Positions 2,353-28,819 of a stretch of DNA of 64,000 nt are shown in pieces. The stretch lies in NCBI GenBank assembly GCA_937138495.1, contig CAKZPE010000006.1:104624-168623 (forward strand). The letters are read 5' to 3'. This stretch comes from an uncultured Oceanospirillaceae bacterium (GTDB taxonomy: Bacteria; Pseudomonadota; Gammaproteobacteria; Pseudomonadales; Balneatricaceae). Positions within the stretch are counted from its first letter, which is position 1, and every line of letters starts with the position of its first letter. Under the pieces are notes generated by a model. The model saw only the letters and a program-made list of their open reading frames with translations. It made no database searches and was not told where the DNA came from. The position numbers were made by a program, and so were the translations under genes.

Positions 2353-2482
2353 CTTTCTGCCGTCAGGAAAAGAAATATGTCACTGTTTATTTGTACGTAA
2401 AATCAGTGGTTTAACACTGAAAACTCAACTCGGGAATATATCTTGCTTGGTATCTCCTCCCTGATATAAAGGAGGCAGTAGC

Positions 2483-18594: not shown

Positions 18595-21492
18595 CTATAT
18601 CTGTGGACCTGCATCCGGGCTGGCAGGTTGTGCTGTCGGAGCGTCCTTTTCGGATGTTTCTTTCGACGGCTGTTTCGGCGGTGCCGGTGAGAAATAGCCG
18701 ACAACCAGTAACAGCAGGCCCACCACGATGAAGGATACGATGCGTTCTACCGTGCCCCGGTCAGAAAGGTCAAAAATAAACAGCTTGGCAACCACCACGC
18801 CCATCAGTGCGGCACCGATAATCCAGATCTGGCGCTTCATAAGTCGTGAGGCGATGACCATCAGGCTCAGGCCGATAACGGTCCAGCTGATTGAAAAGGC
18901 CATCTGAGCCCGGGCGGATGAAAGCAGTGCATCAGGACGGTAGGGTACGCCGCTGTATGCATACAACGCTTTACAGAGCACCACGTTAAACCAGATGAAG
19001 CAGAATCCTCCCAGCAGGTAACTGGCTGCGGAAGGCTCTATGTTCAGAGCTGTTGTATGCCGGCCGTTGCAGTACCAGTGCAGGCATGCCAGTACTGCCG
19101 TTAACTGGGCCAGGTCGATCGGGTTCAGCAGGGGCAGATACGGCAGCGGATCTGGCAGGTTTACCTGGAAGAAGTTACCCAGAACGGACCACCAGATCAG
19201 TGTCAGCATCAGGCCGCCGGCAGCAACGGTGTTGTAAGCCTGTGGCCATTGGATGAAGGGCCAGCGGGGGCGGAAGTTAATCAACACCAGTGCCAGGCTG
19301 AGAATGACAGGTGTCAGGCTTAGCTTCCAGCTACTGCTCATGTCCCGGTCATTCAGTAGCCAGTAAACTTCAAAGGTAAGAATCAGACAGGCCAGCAGGT
19401 AACTCACACTGTGCAGCCCATTGGGCCAGCGCAGGGCATAGCCTCTGTGCTCACTAAGCCGCAGGCCGGTATAGATGACGGTAAATGCCAGCAGCCAGGC
19501 GTCGAAATTATTCAGGCTGAGGAAATGGTAGGCTGGGCTGTTCCACAGGTAGGATATCAGTGTGATGCCCGCGCAGAATAACAGGGGTATAACCAGTAAC
19601 CAGAGGGCAAAGCTGAACAGTTGCCAGCGTAGCCAGAGGCTCATCCCTAACCAGAGCAATGCTGACAGGCTGAAAAACAGCACCGCAATGCGGATTTCAT
19701 CAAAACTGCCGAAGGTTTCGGTTTCAATCATCCCGCCGCTGTACCACCAGAGTAAGCCCCACACCAGATAGCCCACTGCCGCCGGTTGTCGGATTTTGTT
19801 GGAAATACCCGACGCTTTGAGCGATGTTTGGCTGAGCAGCCAGGCGGAGAGAATGCCCGGCAGGGCGACCATGATAATGCTCAGGAAGTGGCCGTTCAGG
19901 AACGGCGTATCGGCATAGTTATAGTGGTAGTCGTCCAGCAGCAGTGCGCCACCGGCCAGTTGGATAATGCAGCCAAACAGTACCGGTGCACGGCGGTGCT
20001 GACGCAGGCCAATCCAGATCAGTCCACAGCCTTCAACCGCCCAAATTGCGGCACTCCAGCGGCCGTTCAGTTCGAATGCAACGGCCAGGGTGGCGAAGAT
20101 CACGCCGATTGCAAGAAAGGCTTCTGCCAGCAGGCGCATGTGCGGCCGTTGCCACAAGAGTTTTGCCAGTGCCAGGTAGATGGCTGTCAGTGCCAGGGCG
20201 CTGAGGCTGAGGCCATGGTTAAAGTCACTGACAATGCTGACCTGCAGGCTGAATGCGGCAACTGGCAGGCCGAATACCAGGCTACCATCAATCAGGCCTT
20301 TGAGTTTAGGCGGTTGTTTTGTCGCGAATAACACCGCAATGGTCAGATAAATCAGGAAGAAAATGATCAGAAAGGGTTCGACACTGGAGAACATCTCCGG
20401 GCGATAACGGTCCACGCCCCACAGCAAACTGATCGCAAAGGTAAAGTAAAAACCGGTGACGTTGAGTAAGCGCCAGGATTTTAGCCAGGCAACGGCAAAT
20501 ATCGCCAGATTCAGGACGCTGTAGTAACTGAACAGCGCGACATAGTTTCCGCTGCCGGTTGACGCCAGTATGGGGGCTGCAAAGCCGCCGGTGATGGCGG
20601 TCACCGCCAGGGATTTAGAGTTCTGAATCACCGCCAGTGACATGCCCAGAATGCTGAGCAGAATCAACAGGGGGAAGGCCAGCCCGGCACCGATGATGGC
20701 GTACATTTTGAAACTGGCAAAACTCAGTAAATACAGAATAGCGATGGCGCCGCCCTGCATGACCAGGCCGTAATCCGGACGCTTCAGGCGTAACCGCCAG
20801 CCAATGGCTAACATGATCAGCGCACCGGCCGCGGCGGCAGTCAGGCGGACCTCGATGGGCAGAAGGGCATTGTCGATGGAGTACTTAACCAGAAAAGAGA
20901 TGCCGAAAAACAGCACGATAATGCCGATCCGGATACTCAGGTTGCCCTGCGTGAAATAGTTGATGACGCCCTGTTGCAGCTGCGTAAATATATTCCCCTG
21001 TTGCGGCGTTTTTGTGGCGGTATTTGTCGCAGCAACAGTGGTGCCTTCAACCGGTGGCCGGGGTTGTCCGGTCCAGGGATCTGCGGGTGTTTCTGTTGTT
21101 TCTGTCTCTGAGAGAGGCGCTGCAGTGGGCTGTACAGGTGTGGGTTCTGTCACGATAACCGGAGTGGTATCCGGTATTTTGGGTGTGACAGTAATGTTAT
21201 GCGCAGGTGCGGGGGCCGACTCATCCAGAACAACCGGTGCCGGGGGCGGTTCAGCGTGAGTGGCAGGCTCGTCGGTTTCTGCCTGATCAGCGGTGTGCTG
21301 AGCAGATTGCGGATGGGGTTTCTGTTGCTCGGCTTCCAGCCGTACGACGTGCTGTTCCAGTGTTTTGATACGCCTGCTTTGCTGCAACAGGCTGGCAAAC
21401 AGATAGCCGATGAGTGCGCCGATGACCGCACCGGGAATTTCCAGCATTAACAGCCCCAGTACAGCGCCGCTGATCAGCAGTATCCATAGCAT
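18595..21492 (-). CDS. DUF2339 domain-containing multi-pass membrane protein
   Basis: 965 aa, many TM segments; GIIVLFFGISFLVKYSIDNALLPIEVRLTAAAAGALIMLAIGWRLR is typical of DUF2339. Confidence 0.85.
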   Translation of the reverse strand: MLWILLISGAVLGLLMLEIPGAVIGALIGYLFASLLQQSRRIKTLEQHVVRLEAEQQKPHPQSAQHTADQAETDEPATHAEPPPAPVVLDESAPAPAHNITVTPKIPDTTPVIVTEPTPVQPTAAPLSETETTETPADPWTGQPRPPVEGTTVAATNTATKTPQQGNIFTQLQQGVINYFTQGNLSIRIGIIVLFFGISFLVKYSIDNALLPIEVRLTAAAAGALIMLAIGWRLRLKRPDYGLVMQGGAIAILYLLSFASFKMYAIIGAGLAFPLLILLSILGMSLAVIQNSKSLAVTAITGGFAAPILASTGSGNYVALFSYYSVLNLAIFAVAWLKSWRLLNVTGFYFTFAISLLWGVDRYRPEMFSSVEPFLIIFFLIYLTIAVLFATKQPPKLKGLIDGSLVFGLPVAAFSLQVSIVSDFNHGLSLSALALTAIYLALAKLLWQRPHMRLLAEAFLAIGVIFATLAVAFELNGRWSAAIWAVEGCGLIWIGLRQHRRAPVLFGCIIQLAGGALLLDDYHYNYADTPFLNGHFLSIIMVALPGILSAWLLSQTSLKASGISNKIRQPAAVGYLVWGLLWWYSGGMIETETFGSFDEIRIAVLFFSLSALLWLGMSLWLRWQLFSFALWLLVIPLLFCAGITLISYLWNSPAYHFLSLNNFDAWLLAFTVIYTGLRLSEHRGYALRWPNGLHSVSYLLACLILTFEVYWLLNDRDMSSSWKLSLTPVILSLALVLINFRPRWPFIQWPQAYNTVAAGGLMLTLIWWSVLGNFFQVNLPDPLPYLPLLNPIDLAQLTAVLACLHWYCNGRHTTALNIEPSAASYLLGGFCFIWFNVVLCKALYAYSGVPYRPDALLSSARAQMAFSISWTVIGLSLMVIASRLMKRQIWIIGAALMGVVVAKLFIFDLSDRGTVERIVSFIVVGLLLLVVGYFSPAPPKQPSKETSEKDAPTAQPASPDAGPQI

Positions 21493-21674
21493 CGTTATTC
21501 ATCCTGTGTAACGGTTTTATCCGGCATTCGCGAATCAATATACCATTTCTGTTGCGGGCAGGGGTATTGTCGGTGGGCAAGTCCTTGTTATGTCGATTGA
21601 ATCTACTCATGTTATCCGGGGAAATATTCATACATTAAGGATGGTTTTTTGCGTATTTTCCTGATGGCAGCGGC

Positions 21675-21680
21675 TATAAT
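21675..21680 (+). promoter_or_regulatory. candidate -10 box TATAAT upstream of the structured glyA leader
   Basis: Exact TATAAT about 7 nt before a run of hairpins; no strong -35 seen. Confidence 0.45.
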
Positions 21681-21687
21681 TGTACCG

Positions 21688-21764
21688 CGCTGTGTGTAGG
21701 GGCACAGCGTATACCTGAATGGTCAGGTTCAGAGCGTTTACGGTGACTGCTTAATTACCGTAAA
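21688..21764 (+). ncRNA. candidate structured leader RNA of three consecutive perfect hairpins
   Basis: CGCTGTG-8-CACAGCG (21688-21709), ACCTGA-4-TCAGGT (21713-21728), TTTACGGT-12-ACCGTAAA (21737-21764), directly after TATAAT. Confidence 0.5.
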
Positions 21765-22217
21765 GCGGTTCTTTTAGGATCTTTGTGTGGTGAAAACTGG
21801 CAATTTTGCTCCGATTAATTGTCGTATTTTATCCATACCGGAGATTCAGCCACTAAGGCCATTTGCTTCGGAACTGTCCCTGAATATGTCTTTGCCGTGT
21901 TATGTCCGGTGCTGCCGGCCCTTCGTTTCGCCCCGTTTTAGTGGGGGTTACGGCGGGTGTCGTAAATTCGCACCCGGGCGACGTGTACAAGCATATGTTG
22001 AGGCGTGAGGGCGTTAATATTGGCAGCATTGGGAGTTGTCTTCGATGTCCTACCACTGATGCTACGCAGATTATGCTGTGTTTATCTCCCGAAAGTCGCC
22101 GAATTGCTCAGCCATGAGCAGGGGACAATAAGAATAAATTAAAATTTGAGACGTATTCATTTCGCTGAAGCGGAAGGTGCTCTCACTGTTACTCGGCTGT
22201 AAGGCTAGGAGACTTCA

Positions 22218-23483
22218 ATGTTTACAAAAGATGACCAGATCCAGGGTTATGATGATGTTGTTTGGGCGGCGATTGAGAAAGAAACTCAGCGTCAGGAAAA
22301 CCACATCGAACTGATTGCTTCAGAAAACTACACCAGCCCTCGCGTAATGCAGGCTCAGGGTTCTTCTCTGACAAACAAATACGCTGAAGGTTACCCTGAG
22401 AAGCGTTATTACGGCGGTTGTGAGTACGTTGACGTTGTTGAACAGGCAGCGATCGAACGTGCTAAAGAGCTGTTTGGTGCTGACTACGCGAACGTTCAGC
22501 CACACTCCGGTTCTCAGGCGAACGCGGCTGTTTACATGGCGCTGTGTGAGCCGGGCGACACTGTACTGGGTATGAGCCTGGCACACGGTGGTCACCTGAC
22601 CCACGGTTCTCACGTAAACTTCTCCGGTAAGATCTACAAAGCGGTTCAGTACGGCCTGAACGAGCAGACTGGCGAAATCGATTACGATGAAGTTGAAGCG
22701 CTGGCAATGGAACACAAGCCTAAGATGATCGTGGCGGGTTTCTCTGCTTACTCCGGTGTTGTTGACTGGGCGCGTTTCCGCGAAATCGCTGATAAGTCTG
22801 GCGCTTACCTGTTTGTTGATATGGCACACGTTGCCGGTCTGGTTGCTGCTGGCGAATACCCTAACCCGGTTCCTTACGCTGACGTTGCTACTACCACGAC
22901 TCACAAAACTCTGCGTGGCCCACGTGGCGGTCTGATCGTTGCCAAGTCTAACCCTGACCTTGAGAAGAAGCTGAACGGTGCTGTCTTCCCGGGTGGCCAG
23001 GGTGGTCCTCTGATGCACATCATCGCGGCGAAAGCAGTTGCTTTCAAAGAAGCACTGGAACCAGGCTTCAAAGACTACCAGCAGCAAGTTAAGAAGAATG
23101 CGTCTGCCATGGCTGAAGTATTCATCGAGCGTGGCTATGAAGTTGTTTCCGGCGGTACGCAGAACCACCTGTTCCTGCTGAGCCTGATCAAACAGGGTCT
23201 GACCGGTAAAGATGCAGATGCTGCTCTGGGCCGTGCTCACATCACTGTGAACAAGAACGCTGTTCCTAACGACCCACAGTCTCCTTTCGTGACTTCTGGT
23301 CTGCGTATCGGTTCTCCGGTAGTGACTACCCGTGGTTTCGGTGAAGCTGAATGTCGTGAACTGACTGGCTGGATCGCTGATCTGCTGGACGTTCTGAACC
23401 AGCCTGAAGCACTGGAAAAAGAAATTGTTGAAGTTCAGGGTAAAGTAGAAGCTCTGTGCGCTAAATTCCCAGCGTACAAGTAA
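22218..23483 (+). CDS. glyA: serine hydroxymethyltransferase, copy 1
   Basis: 421 aa; [58 protein letters not shown]. Confidence 0.97.
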
Positions 23484-23591: not shown

Positions 23592-24845
23592 ATGCAGCAT
23601 TATTCAGGTTTCGGGCTGTTTAAGCACAGCTTGAGTCACCACGAGAATTGGCAGCGCGCCTGGCGCAACCCTACGCCAAAGAAGAAGTATGACGTCATCA
23701 TTATCGGTGGTGGTGGTCATGGTCTGGCGACGGCTTATTACCTGGCGAAGAACCACAATGTGACCAACGTAGCGGTTATCGAGAAGGGGTATCTGGGCGG
23801 TGGTAACACGGCACGTAACACCACTATCGTACGTTCTAACTACTTGTGGGACGAAGCCGCTCACCTGTATGAGCACGCCATGAAGTTGTGGGAAGGTCTG
23901 TCACAGGATCTGAACTACAACGTTATGTTCTCTCAGCGTGGTGTACTGAACCTGGGCCATACCCTGCAGGATATGCGTGATATTGAACGCCGGGTAAATG
24001 CTAACCGTCTGAACGGTATTGATGGCGAAGTGGTTGATCCACAGACGATTAAAGAAATCGTGCCACACATGGACTGCTCCGATAATGCCCGTTACCCGAT
24101 CATGGGTGCATCCTGGCAGCCACGCGGCGGTGTTGCCCGTCACGATGCTGTTGCCTGGGGCTTTGCCCGTGGTGCGGATTCCTTCGGTGTTGATCTGATT
24201 CAGCAGACCGAAGTGCAGGACCTGATTATTGAAGATGGCACCATCGTTGGCGTGAAGACCAACCGCTACGGTGACATCATGGCAGACCGTGTAGGCTCTG
24301 TTGTAGCCGGTAACTCCGGTGTGGTTGCCAAGATGGCTGGCTTCGAGCTGCCTTTGGAATCTCACCCGTTGCAGGCAATGGTTTCCGAACCGATCAAGCC
24401 GATCCTGGATACCGTTGTAATGTCTAACCACGTACACGGTTACCTGAGCCAGTCTGATAAGGGCGATCTGGTAATCGGTGCCGGTATCGACGGCTATGTT
24501 GGTTACGGCCAGCGCGGTTCTTTCCCAACTGTTGAGCACACCATGCAGGCGATTGTTGAGATGTTCCCAATCTTCAGCCGGGTCCGTCTGAACCGTCAGT
24601 GGGGCGGTATCGTAGATACCTGTCCGGATGCCTGTCCGCTGATTACACCGACACCGGTTAAGAACCTGTTCTTCAACTGCGGTTGGGGTACCGGTGGCTT
24701 TAAAGCGACGCCGGGTGCAGGCCATGTCTTTGCTGACATGCTGGCCACGGGTGAAGCAAACGAAATGTCTAAGCCGTTTGATATGCGTCGTTTCCATAAC
24801 GGTGCACTGATCGATGAGCACGGCGCTGCCGGCGTAGCACACTAA
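23592..24845 (+). CDS. soxB: sarcosine oxidase subunit beta
   Basis: 417 aa; NWQRAWRNPTPKKKYDVIIIGGGGHGLATAYYLAKNH; CGWGTGGFKATPGAGHVFADMLA. Confidence 0.95.
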   Translation: MQHYSGFGLFKHSLSHHENWQRAWRNPTPKKKYDVIIIGGGGHGLATAYYLAKNHNVTNVAVIEKGYLGGGNTARNTTIVRSNYLWDEAAHLYEHAMKLWEGLSQDLNYNVMFSQRGVLNLGHTLQDMRDIERRVNANRLNGIDGEVVDPQTIKEIVPHMDCSDNARYPIMGASWQPRGGVARHDAVAWGFARGADSFGVDLIQQTEVQDLIIEDGTIVGVKTNRYGDIMADRVGSVVAGNSGVVAKMAGFELPLESHPLQAMVSEPIKPILDTVVMSNHVHGYLSQSDKGDLVIGAGIDGYVGYGQRGSFPTVEHTMQAIVEMFPIFSRVRLNRQWGGIVDTCPDACPLITPTPVKNLFFNCGWGTGGFKATPGAGHVFADMLATGEANEMSKPFDMRRFHNGALIDEHGAAGVAH

Positions 24846-24860
24846 GGGGAGAGAGCTGAC

Positions 24861-25148
24861 ATGTTTTATATCTACTGCCCGCATTGTGGCGAGCACCGTG
24901 AAGAAGAAGAGTTTCACCCGAAAGGTCAGGCACACATTGTGCGTCCGTTAGATCCGGATAACTGCACCGATAAAGAATGGGGTGAGTACCTGTATTTCCG
25001 TAAGAACCCACGTGGTCTGCACCACGAGCTGTGGGTACACGCTGCCGGTTGTCGTAAGTTTTTCAACATGACCCGCGACACCGTGACTTACGAAATCAAA
25101 GAAATTTATAAGATCGGCGAACAGCCGTCTGTTGTTGCTGACAGCTAA
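24861..25148 (+). CDS. soxD: sarcosine oxidase subunit delta
   Basis: 95 aa; IYCPHCGEHREEEEFHPKGQAHIVRP...WVHAAGCRKFFNMTRDTVTYEI. Confidence 0.95.
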   Translation: MFYIYCPHCGEHREEEEFHPKGQAHIVRPLDPDNCTDKEWGEYLYFRKNPRGLHHELWVHAAGCRKFFNMTRDTVTYEIKEIYKIGEQPSVVADS

Positions 25149-25161
25149 CAGGAGCGGATTC

Positions 25162-28100
25162 ATGACACAGAAAAACCGCCTCCAGTCCGGAGGCCGCATC
25201 GACCGTTCCAAGTCCTTAACCTTTTCCTACAATGGTCAGGAATTCAAAGGTTTCCAGGGCGATACACTGGCATCTGCGATGCTGGCGAACGGCATCGACG
25301 TAATTGGTCGTAGTTTTAAATACAGCCGCCCGCGCGGTATCGTAGCCGCCGGTGCTGAAGAGCCGAATGCGGTAATGCAGCTGGGCGCCACTGAAGCGAC
25401 TCAGGTACCTAACGTACGGGCAACTCAGCAAGAGCTGTTCCACGGTCTGGTGAGCAAGGCGACTAACGGCTGGCCAAACGTAGACACCGACATCATGAGC
25501 CTGCTGGGCAAAGTCGGTGGCAAGATGATGCCTCCTGGCTTCTACTACAAGACCTTCATGTACCCGCAGTCTATGTGGGATACCTATGAAAGCATGATCC
25601 GTAAGGCTGCCGGTTTAGGCCGTTCGCCGCTGGAAACAGATCCGGATACATACGACAAAGTTAACCAGCACTGCGATATCCTGGTTGTCGGCGCTGGCCC
25701 TGCGGGTCTGGCAGCTGCGCAAACCGCTGCACGCAGTGGCGCCCGTGTCATCATCGCTGATGAGCAGAGCGAATTCGGTGGCAGCCTGCTGAGCAGCAAA
25801 GAAATGCTGAACGGCAAGCCAGCAGCTGACTGGGTTGCAGAAGTCACTGCTGAACTGGAAGCGGCTGATAACGTAATGGTTCTGCCACGTTCTACTGTGA
25901 ACGGCTACCACGATCAGAACTTCCTGACGATCCACGAACGCCGCACCGATCACATTGCTGATCTGGCGCCAGCCGGTCAGGTGCGTCAGCGTCTGCACCG
26001 TGTCCGTGCCAAGTGGGTTGTTCTGGCGACTGGCGCACACGAACGTCCGCTGGTATTCGCGAACAACGATGTACCGGGTTGCATGGTTGCAAACGCAGTT
26101 TCTACCTACATCAACCGTTACGGTGTAGTACCGGGTAACGAACTGGTACTGATGACCACCAACGATAACGCCTATCAGGCGGCGATCGACTGGGCTGAAG
26201 CAGGCCGTAAAGTGGTTGCGATTGTTGATACCCGTCAGTCGCCTGCCGGTGACCGTATTGATGCTGCCCGTAAGTTGGGCATCAACATCATTACCGGTTC
26301 TGCAGTGATTGAAGTTCAGGGCAGCAAGCGTGTGTCCGGCGTCAGCGTTGCACCTATCAGCAGCGACGGCAGCACTATTTCCGGTTCTGTGCAGCGTCTG
26401 AGTGCAGACACTGTTGCAAGCTCCGGTGGCTGGAGCCCGGTTATTCACCTGTCCTGCCACACGGGCAGCCGTCCGGTCTGGAACGAAGACGTTGTTGGCT
26501 TCCTGCCTGGCCCGACTGTACAGAAGCAACTGATTGCCGGTGCAATTAATGGTAGCTACAGCACAGCGAAAGCGCTGGGTGAAGGTGTTGAAGCCGCGAA
26601 CAGCGCGATTGCTTCCCTGAATCTGGATGCGGTAGCTGTAGAAGTACCTGCGACTGAAGACGTGGCTGAAGGCCCTGTTCAGACGCTGTTCCACATCCCG
26701 CACACCAAGCCGACAGCCGCTGCGCCTAAGCAGTTCGTTGATTACCAGAACGACGTAACAGCGTCCGGTATCGAGCTGGCGTGCCGTGAAGGTTACGAGT
26801 CTATCGAGCACGTGAAGCGTTACACCGCGATGGGCTTCGGTACTGACCAGGGTAAGCTGGGTAATATCAACGGTATGGCGATTGCCGCGAAGACTCTGAA
26901 CAAGAGCATTCCGGAAACCGGTACGACCATTTTCCGTCCTAACTACACGCCGGTTACTTTCGGTGCGATGGTTGGCCGTGACTGTGGTGAGCTGTTTGAT
27001 CCAGAGCGTTACACCGCGATGCACAAGTGGCATCTGGAAAACGGCGCTAAGTTTGAGGACGTAGGCCAGTGGAAACGTCCATGGTACTTCCCGAAAGCGG
27101 GTGAGACCATGCAGGAAGCGCTGAACCGTGAGTGTGTAGCCACCCGTGAAAGCGTCGGTATTCTGGATGCATCCACTCTGGGTAAAATTGATATTCAGGG
27201 TAAAGATGCCCGTGAATTCCTGGGCCGTGTATACACCAACCCATGGGCCAAGTTGCCGGTCGGTAAGTGCCGTTACGGTCTGATGTGTGGTGAAGACGGT
27301 ATGGTCTTCGATGACGGTGTAACGACTTGTCTGGGTGAGAACCACTTCCTGATGACGACCACTTCCGGTGGCGCGGCACGGGTATACGAGTGGCTGGAAC
27401 TGTGGCACCAGACTGAATGGCCTGAGCTGGAAGTTTACTTCAACACAGTGACCGATCACTGGGCGACCATGACAATTTCCGGTCCGAACAGCCGTAAGCT
27501 GCTGGAAGAAGTCTGCACCGATATCGACCTGTCCAACGAAGCATTTGCCTTCATGGACTGGAAAGCCGGTACTGTTGCAGGCGTACCTGCACGGGTATTC
27601 CGGATTTCCTTCACCGGTGAACTGTCTTACGAGATTAACGTTCAGGCGAACTATGGTTTGCAGGTTTGGGAAAAGCTGTTCGAACACGGTGAGAAGTACA
27701 ACCTGACACCTTACGGTACTGAAACCATGCACGTGCTGCGTGCTGAGAAAGGTTTCATCATCGCCGGTCAGGATACTGACGGTTCCGTTCACCCGCACGA
27801 CCTGGGTATGAGCTGGTGTGTGTCTGACAAGAAGCCGTTCAGCTATATCGGTAAGCGCGGTATGAAGCGTGAAGACTGTGTCCGTGAAAACCGTAAGCAA
27901 CTGGTCGGTCTGAAGACTAAAGATCCGATGGTTGTGATTCCGGAAGGTTCGCAGGGTGTATTCGATAAGAATGCGCCAATCCCGATGCCAATGGTTGGTC
28001 ACGTTACATCCAGCTATTACAGTGCCGTTCTGGGTCACAGCATTGCCATGGGCTTTGTGAAAGGTGGTCTGAACCGTATGGGCGAAACCGTTTACTATCC

Positions 28101-28182
28101 ACAGGCGGATGGTAGTTTTATTGAGGCTGAAATTTGCAGCCCGATCTTCCTTGATCCTAAAGGGGAGCGTCAGAATGTCTGA
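25162..28182 (+). CDS. soxA: sarcosine oxidase subunit alpha
   Basis: Start MTQKNRLQSGGRIDRSKSLTFSYNGQEFKGFQGDTLASAML; C-terminal GcvT-like aminomethyltransferase domain. Confidence 0.95.
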   Translation: MTQKNRLQSGGRIDRSKSLTFSYNGQEFKGFQGDTLASAMLANGIDVIGRSFKYSRPRGIVAAGAEEPNAVMQLGATEATQVPNVRATQQELFHGLVSKATNGWPNVDTDIMSLLGKVGGKMMPPGFYYKTFMYPQSMWDTYESMIRKAAGLGRSPLETDPDTYDKVNQHCDILVVGAGPAGLAAAQTAARSGARVIIADEQSEFGGSLLSSKEMLNGKPAADWVAEVTAELEAADNVMVLPRSTVNGYHDQNFLTIHERRTDHIADLAPAGQVRQRLHRVRAKWVVLATGAHERPLVFANNDVPGCMVANAVSTYINRYGVVPGNELVLMTTNDNAYQAAIDWAEAGRKVVAIVDTRQSPAGDRIDAARKLGINIITGSAVIEVQGSKRVSGVSVAPISSDGSTISGSVQRLSADTVASSGGWSPVIHLSCHTGSRPVWNEDVVGFLPGPTVQKQLIAGAINGSYSTAKALGEGVEAANSAIASLNLDAVAVEVPATEDVAEGPVQTLFHIPHTKPTAAAPKQFVDYQNDVTASGIELACREGYESIEHVKRYTAMGFGTDQGKLGNINGMAIAAKTLNKSIPETGTTIFRPNYTPVTFGAMVGRDCGELFDPERYTAMHKWHLENGAKFEDVGQWKRPWYFPKAGETMQEALNRECVATRESVGILDASTLGKIDIQGKDAREFLGRVYTNPWAKLPVGKCRYGLMCGEDGMVFDDGVTTCLGENHFLMTTTSGGAARVYEWLELWHQTEWPELEVYFNTVTDHWATMTISGPNSRKLLEEVCTDIDLSNEAFAFMDWKAGTVAGVPARVFRISFTGELSYEINVQANYGLQVWEKLFEHGEKYNLTPYGTETMHVLRAEKGFIIAGQDTDGSVHPHDLGMSWCVSDKKPFSYIGKRGMKREDCVRENRKQLVGLKTKDPMVVIPEGSQGVFDKNAPIPMPMVGHVTSSYYSAVLGHSIAMGFVKGGLNRMGETVYYPQADGSFIEAEICSPIFLDPKGERQNV

Positions 28183-28819
28183 TAACGAAGTATTTGCAGC
28201 GGTTATGAATCAGCTGCCGGATGCCAGCATCCCGGGTTACTCGCCGCTACATCACGCGGATCTGGAAACACTGGCTAAGCAGGGACCACAGCAGGGCGGT
28301 GTACACCTGCGTGAACACAAGCTGTTAGGTCATCTGGTATTACGTTGCAACCCGGAGAACCCGGAGCATCTGGCAGGCGCTGAGCGTGTGCTGGGCGTTG
28401 CACTGCCTCTGAAGCCAATGTCTTCTGTGACTGAAGGTAACGTATCTGTACTGTGGACCTCACCGGATGAGTGGGTAATCATGGTTCCGGGTCTGGAAGC
28501 GTTTGATTACGAAACCAAATTCCGTGCGGAAATGTCCGGTCACTACTCGCTGGTTAACGTCAGCGGCGGCCAGACACTGGTTGAAGTATCCGGCGCTAAC
28601 GTTGTGGAGATGCTGAAGAAATCTTCACCACTGGATTTCGATCTGAGCGTATTCCCGGTCGGTAAGGTTGCCGGTACTGTGTTTGCTAAAGCAGGTGCTG
28701 TGATCCGTCGTACCGGTGAAGACCGTTTCGAGCTGATTATTCGCCGTAGCTTTGCTGACTATCTGTGGCTGTGGCTGCAGGACGCCAGCCGCGAGTACGG
28801 ACTGGTGATTGAAGCGTAA
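28175..28819 (+). CDS. soxG: sarcosine oxidase subunit gamma
   Basis: Start MSDNEVFAAVMNQLPDAS overlaps the soxA end; GcvT-like fold region (DEWVIMVPG...SGGQTLVEVSGANVVEMLKKSSPLDFDLSVFP). Confidence 0.93.
   Translation: MSDNEVFAAVMNQLPDASIPGYSPLHHADLETLAKQGPQQGGVHLREHKLLGHLVLRCNPENPEHLAGAERVLGVALPLKPMSSVTEGNVSVLWTSPDEWVIMVPGLEAFDYETKFRAEMSGHYSLVNVSGGQTLVEVSGANVVEMLKKSSPLDFDLSVFPVGKVAGTVFAKAGAVIRRTGEDRFELIIRRSFADYLWLWLQDASREYGLVIEA

What the first reader, a model, noticed from the sequence alone, without database searches (positions are those of the whole stretch)
21675..22217. Long hairpin-rich leader upstream of glyA-soxBDAG: possible new cis-regulatory RNA
The sequence shows an exact TATAAT (21675-21680), followed about 7 nt later by three back-to-back perfect hairpins: CGCTGTG-8-CACAGCG, ACCTGA-4-TCAGGT and TTTACGGT-12-ACCGTAAA. 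Further IRs lie downstream (CGGGTG/CACCCG near 21955-21977; GCTCA-GCCA-TGAGC near 22107-22120). glyA starts only at 22218, giving a leader of about 530 nt with no convincing ORF. I do not recognise the glycine, THF, SAM or SAH riboswitch consensus. A ligand in the sarcosine/glycine/one-carbon pathway is plausible but is inference.
Basis: partly seen in the sequence, partly recalled or inferred. Interest (0 to 1): 0.72.

Follow-up and report, generated by a model that had tools for sequence, protein, structure and literature searches.

The report
Hairpin RNA upstream of activator-controlled glyA-sox
The supposed 530-base riboswitch leader is two separate things: a small lineage-specific structured RNA with its own promoter, and further on a DNA switch, shared by many marine bacteria, where an activator protein of a known kind probably turns on sarcosine breakdown.

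Summary
The sequence features are real: conserved TATAAT, three perfect hairpins, no coding ORF, no Rfam match. The hairpins are more than chance. In four Aliamphritea genomes they show compensatory changes (7 of 25 pairs), and a fourth, G·U-rich hairpin (21777-21847) follows that folds well only as plus-strand RNA. But the "530-nt glyA leader/riboswitch" reading fails on its main point. Inside the proposed leader, at 21958-21984, lies TGTCGT-15 bp-CGACGT with a -10 box TAATAT at 22015-22020. A matrix trained only on other genera's glyA-sox promoters (Amphritea, Neptunomonas, Marinobacterium, Halomonas, enterics) finds it as the single outstanding site in 64 kb. Hexamer-15-hexamer is the footprinted layout of the AraC/GATR activator CdhR, which resembles the sites of GbdR, SouR and ArgR. 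So glyA-soxBDAG is most likely transcribed from about 22027 under a GbdR/SouR-type activator, with a 190-nt, unremarkably folding 5'UTR; the sarcosine/betaine signal is sensed by protein. The hairpin cluster (21687 to about 21850) is best read as a separate Aliamphritea-specific small RNA, or less likely the start of a second, longer leader. Its function is untested. The promoter is a known kind; the RNA is a modest new candidate.

The parts
21675..21680 (+). TATAAT, candidate -10 of upstream promoter P1 (no canonical -35)
   Evidence: Exact match; GCTATAATT invariant in 4 Aliamphritea genomes; promoter scan finds no full sigma-70 match.
21687..21710 (+). Hairpin 1, begins at the predicted +1 of P1
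   Evidence: Two pairs with compensatory changes plus one GC/GU change in 4 species.
21713..21728 (+). Hairpin 2
   Evidence: 6 bp, 95.8% of cells paired; one-sided G-U changes only.
21737..21764 (+). Hairpin 3, followed by GCGGTTCTTTT (weak terminator-like tail)
   Evidence: 5 of 10 pairs with compensatory changes; listed as terminator-like; tail GGTTCTTTT conserved except one T lost in G002.
21777..21847 (+).
   Evidence: z=-2.8, and -2.4 in G003; 106/108 cells pair on + strand but only 76/108 on - strand: plus-strand RNA, not a DNA palindrome.
21901..21949 (+). Variable spacer between the structured element and the operator
   Evidence: 9, 14 and 10 of 49 columns differ from G001, G002, G003, against 0, 0 and 6 of 83 in the next segment.
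21958..21984 (+). GATR-type activator operator: TGTCGT-15 bp-CGACGT direct repeat
   Evidence: Matrix from 20 loci of other genera scores 31.4 bits; next in window -3.1; best of 5 Mb Markov sequence 10.8; layout as CdhR footprint (PMC5806209).
22015..22020 (+). -10 box TAATAT of the main promoter P2
   Evidence: 57 bp after the operator start; aligned with TACTAT/TAATAT/TAGTAT at 58 bp in relatives.
22027..22217 (+). Predicted 5'UTR of glyA-soxBDAG mRNA from P2 (TSS about 22026-22028, inferred)
   Evidence: Folds no better than shuffles, z=-0.75; nearly invariant within Aliamphritea; not coding.
22218..23483 (+). glyA, serine hydroxymethyltransferase
   Evidence: NF000586, 650.8 bits.
23592..28819 (+). 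soxB, soxD, soxA, soxG (heterotetrameric sarcosine oxidase)
   Evidence: TIGR01373, 01374 and 01372 over cut-off; TIGR01375 (soxG) 139.3 bits, just under its cut-off of 143.95.

Best explanation
The 725-bp divergent intergenic region holds two independent units. (1) Main promoter P2: an AraC/GATR-family activator (GbdR- or SouR-like, sensing betaine-derived metabolites or sarcosine as protein ligands) binds the direct repeat TGTCGT-N15-CGACGT at 21958-21984 and recruits RNA polymerase to the -10 at 22015-22020. glyA-soxBDAG mRNA starts near 22027 with a 190-nt UTR. The operator and its conservation are shown; binding, regulator identity and TSS are inferred. (2) Upstream, a TATAAT promoter P1 starts a structured RNA of four hairpins (21687 to about 21850), found only in Aliamphritea and preserved by compensatory changes. 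It most likely acts as a separate small RNA rather than as the operon's sensor. The structure is supported; its transcription, 3' end and function are inferred.
For: Operator: conserved upstream of glyA-sox in Amphritea, Neptunomonas, Marinobacterium, Halomonas and Enterobacterales, with a similar first half-site in Vibrio. The matrix built without Aliamphritea gives 31.4 bits here, next best in the window -3.1, and 0 of 5 Mb random positions reach it. Fixed 57-58 bp to a -10. GATR precedent: CdhR half-sites GGTCGC, 15-bp spacer, similar to GbdR, SouR and ArgR (PMC5806209); soxBDAG needs GbdR and SouR in P. aeruginosa (PMC12093977). The genome holds a GbdR equivalog, 625 bits against cut-off 480. 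A near match (1 mismatch) lies upstream of sda-fdhA-fghA, the serine deaminase and formaldehyde genes of the same pathway. RNA: z=-3.2, covariation 7/25 pairs, hairpin 4 that pairs well on the plus strand only, single copy in four Aliamphritea genomes and not found in other genera.
Against: No TSS data. P1 lacks a -35. No good terminator closes the RNA: the tail after hairpin 3 is a weak U-run and hairpin 4 has none. P1 transcripts could run on into glyA. The near-invariance of the P2 UTR within the genus is not explained by a promoter alone. The pattern search for further operator sites in the genome shows no excess over its control (11 against 36).
Confidence: 0.7

Rival explanations
1. P1 makes a long second leader: some glyA-sox mRNA starts at about 21687 and carries the four hairpins, which control read-through (attenuation) or stability, in addition to P2.
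For: Same strand, no strong terminator between P1 and glyA; hairpin 3 followed by UUCUUUU; conservation of 21765-21900.
Against: The stretch 21901-21949 between the hairpins and P2 is poorly conserved; the element is not found at the same operon in other genera.
Confidence: 0.22
2. The hairpin cluster is a riboswitch for sarcosine, glycine or another one-carbon ligand that controls glyA-sox.
For: Covarying structure upstream of a one-carbon operon; no known family.
Against: 370 nt from the gene with a conserved activator promoter in between; hairpins 1-3 diverge as fast as or faster than their surroundings (24/79 columns in G003), with no invariant multi-helix ligand core; lineage-restricted.
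Confidence: 0.04
3. The inverted repeats are DNA operator palindromes for a repressor or activator, not RNA.
For: Hairpins 1 and 3 are perfect dyads in G000.
Against: Compensatory changes keep pairing while altering sequence, not what a sequence-specific protein site would show; hairpin 4 pairs well only on the plus strand through G-U pairs (106 against 76 of 108 cells).
Confidence: 0.06

Closest known systems
GATR/AraC-family activator sites (CdhR; also GbdR, SouR, ArgR) of Pseudomonas
   Same: Direct-repeat hexamers (GGTCGC/TGTCGY type) with a 15-bp spacer, upstream of a betaine/sarcosine/carnitine catabolic promoter (PMC5806209, PMC12093977).
   Different: Downstream half-site here is CGACGT; the regulator that binds in Aliamphritea is not shown; GbdR and SouR cannot be told apart from the site.
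Glycine, THF, SAM and SAH riboswitches (Rfam)
   Same: Would sit in leaders of one-carbon or glycine genes.
   Different: No match at gathering threshold or at E<=10; a promoter separates the RNA from the gene.
Lineage-restricted bacterial small RNAs in intergenic regions
   Same: TATAAT just upstream, 5'-terminal hairpin, series of hairpins, last of the first three followed by a U-rich tail.
   Different: No clear intrinsic terminator, no expression data, no target known.

Membership tests
GATR-type activator operator/promoter (CdhR, GbdR, SouR, ArgR sites) | Two direct-repeat hexamers of T/GGTCGC type separated by 15 bp | tested here: met
   TGTCGT-N15-CGACGT at 21958-21984; definition from PMC5806209. 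The second hexamer is degenerate, as reported for ArgR (PMC10963909).
GATR-type activator operator/promoter (CdhR, GbdR, SouR, ArgR sites) | Conserved at orthologous operons and fixed distance to a -10 | tested here: met
   20 loci of other genera, -10 at 57-58 bp from the operator start.
GATR-type activator operator/promoter (CdhR, GbdR, SouR, ArgR sites) | Cognate regulator encoded in the genome | tested here: met
   GbdR equivalog L127, 625 bits; several other GATR paralogues, so which one binds is open.
GATR-type activator operator/promoter (CdhR, GbdR, SouR, ArgR sites) | Binding and sarcosine/betaine-dependent activation | not testable with these tools
   Needs EMSA or reporter.
Known riboswitch of Rfam | Match to a covariance model | tested here: not met
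   none.
New riboswitch for glyA-sox | Structure in the mRNA leader next to the expression platform of the gene | tested here: not met
   A conserved promoter lies between; UTR z=-0.75.
New riboswitch for glyA-sox | Structure conserved with the operon across genera | tested here: not met
   R1 model finds it in 4 Aliamphritea genomes only.
New riboswitch for glyA-sox | Ligand binding | not testable with these tools
   Needs in-line probing.
Small RNA gene | Covarying plus-strand RNA structure | tested here: met
   (only four sequences).
Small RNA gene | Own promoter and terminator | tested here: inconclusive
   Conserved TATAAT without -35; only a weak U-tail after hairpin 3.
Small RNA gene | Discrete transcript | not testable with these tools
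   No RNA-seq held.

The most novel reading that the evidence does not exclude
The four-hairpin element at 21687 to about 21850 is an undescribed, Aliamphritea-specific regulatory RNA, either a small RNA born next to the sarcosine operon or a second-promoter leader that tunes glyA-sox.
Probability: 0.6. Interest if true: 0.4.

Novelty: new member of a known kind. Interest (0 to 1): 0.33.

Why it matters
It replaces a riboswitch hypothesis with a testable protein-switch model shared by the glyA-sox operons of many marine bacteria, and gives a matrix with which that regulon can be mapped. It also leaves one small structured RNA with covariation support that is in no Rfam family.

Tried and rejected
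Rfam at gathering threshold and E<=10: nothing. Coding reading of the leader: no Pfam or NCBIfam match; changes mostly nonsynonymous, also in a 27-codon uORF at 22059. Second operator at 21820 (TGTCGTATTT): matrix score -14, rejected; it is part of hairpin 4. Structured 190-nt UTR: z=-0.75, rejected. Homologues of the leader in other genera by DNA or covariance model: none at convincing E; a weak blastn hit in Amphritea balenae at 21958 is what led to the operator. Plasmid search: none. More operator sites by pattern in the own genome: no excess over the control pattern, but one of the 11 hits is upstream of sda-fdhA-fghA. The SouR and GbdR regulon papers were not held.

Full report
Setting. 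The window lies in a genome of the Amphritea/Aliamphritea group; the nearest named record is Aliamphritea spongicola. glyA (22218-23483) is followed by soxB, soxD, soxA and soxG. The gene to the left (18595-21492) is on the minus strand, so 21493-22217 is a divergent intergenic region of 725 bp.

Observation. No Rfam family matches, even at E<=10. There is no convincing ORF. As one 531-nt RNA the region folds at z=-2.96, but a sliding analysis shows that the clearest excess structure lies at 21680-21860; a single window at 21940-22039, over the operator/promoter, also reaches z=-2.2.

The hairpins are real RNA structure. Four genomes (G000-G003) carry the region. On their alignment 7 of 25 pairs of hairpins 1-3 have compensatory changes and 95.9% of cells pair, against 0 or 1 such pairs when partners are slid. 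Re-dealing the same substitutions over the columns gives a mean of 0.8 and never 7 in 5000 trials. Five of the seven are in hairpin 3 and two in hairpin 1; hairpin 2 has only one-sided changes. A fourth hairpin, 21777-21847, was not in the finding: z=-2.8, and -2.4 in G003. It relies on G-U pairs, so it forms well on the plus strand only (106 of 108 cells, against 76 on the minus strand). That argues for transcribed RNA and against DNA palindromes. Limit: four sequences, three of them close. A covariance model of hairpins 1-3 finds no convincing copy outside these four genomes, and one convincing copy in each.

The leader contains a promoter. Comparing 650 bp upstream of glyA across the glyA-sox loci collected by SoxD similarity shows a short element conserved between genera whose leaders are otherwise unrelated: TGTCGY-AAAT...-15 bp spacer-NGRCGY-...AGCAT-...-TANTAT. 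Its position varies from -97 to -449 relative to glyA, but its distance to the -10-like box is nearly constant at 58 bp. A weight matrix trained on 20 loci, none of them Aliamphritea, was then run over the window. It gives 31.4 bits at 21958(+); the next best of all positions on both strands is -3.1, and the best of 5 million Markov positions is 10.8. The site is TGTCGT-AAATTCGCACCCGGG-CGACGT, with TAATAT 57 bp from its start.

What binds it. DNase footprinting of CdhR in P. aeruginosa defined half-sites GGTCGC with a 15-bp spacer, very similar to the sites of GbdR, SouR and ArgR (PMC5806209); the ArgR consensus begins TGTCGC (PMC10963909). In P. aeruginosa soxBDAG needs GbdR and SouR, and SouR responds to sarcosine (PMC12093977). 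The genome encodes a GbdR equivalog (625 bits, cut-off 480) and several relatives. A site one mismatch from the pattern lies upstream of sda-fdhA-fghA, i.e. serine deaminase plus formaldehyde detoxification, the next steps of the same pathway. That pattern has no genome-wide excess over its control, so this is suggestive only. A GbdR/SouR-type activator is therefore the likely sensor; which one is unknown.

Consequences. The predicted TSS is near 22027 and the UTR about 190 nt (inferred). The UTR folds like shuffles (z=-0.75). It is strikingly conserved within the genus: 0 of 187 columns differ from G001, where fourfold sites of glyA differ by 14%. This is unexplained. Between the hairpins and the operator, 21901-21949 is poorly conserved, which suggests two separate units.

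Verdict. The regulation of glyA-sox is most likely a known kind: an activator-controlled promoter. The hairpin cluster is a genuine but lineage-restricted structured RNA, best guessed to be a small RNA starting at about 21687 (TATAAT conserved, no -35, weak terminator), less likely the head of a second long leader. A metabolite riboswitch for glyA-sox is unlikely.

Noticed in passing
22033-22217: The 5'UTR of the predicted P2 transcript is nearly invariant between Aliamphritea species (0/187, 3/187 and 13/187 columns), more so than fourfold sites of glyA, without special folding or coding signal.
   Followed up: partly
22129-22139: AATAAGAATAA in the UTR resembles the A-rich Hfq/Crc target motif (AANAANAA) of Pseudomonas catabolic mRNAs, though it is some 80 nt from the start codon; recalled from memory, not tested.
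   Followed up: no
L167:2676-2702 (G000:C6:84675-84701): GATR-like site TGTCGTAAATTGGCACATGGCTGCCGT upstream of sda-fdhA-fghA (serine deaminase, formaldehyde dehydrogenase, S-formylglutathione hydrolase), possibly the same regulon.
   Followed up: partly
L170:about 2375-2412 (-): TGTCGT-15-GGGCGT direct repeat just upstream of the likely start of the gbdR homologue, possible autoregulation.
   Followed up: no
18595-21492: 965-aa minus-strand gene divergent from glyA, a multi-pass membrane protein with no NCBIfam match at E<=1e-30; evolves fast (37-48% change at fourfold sites in relatives).
   Followed up: no
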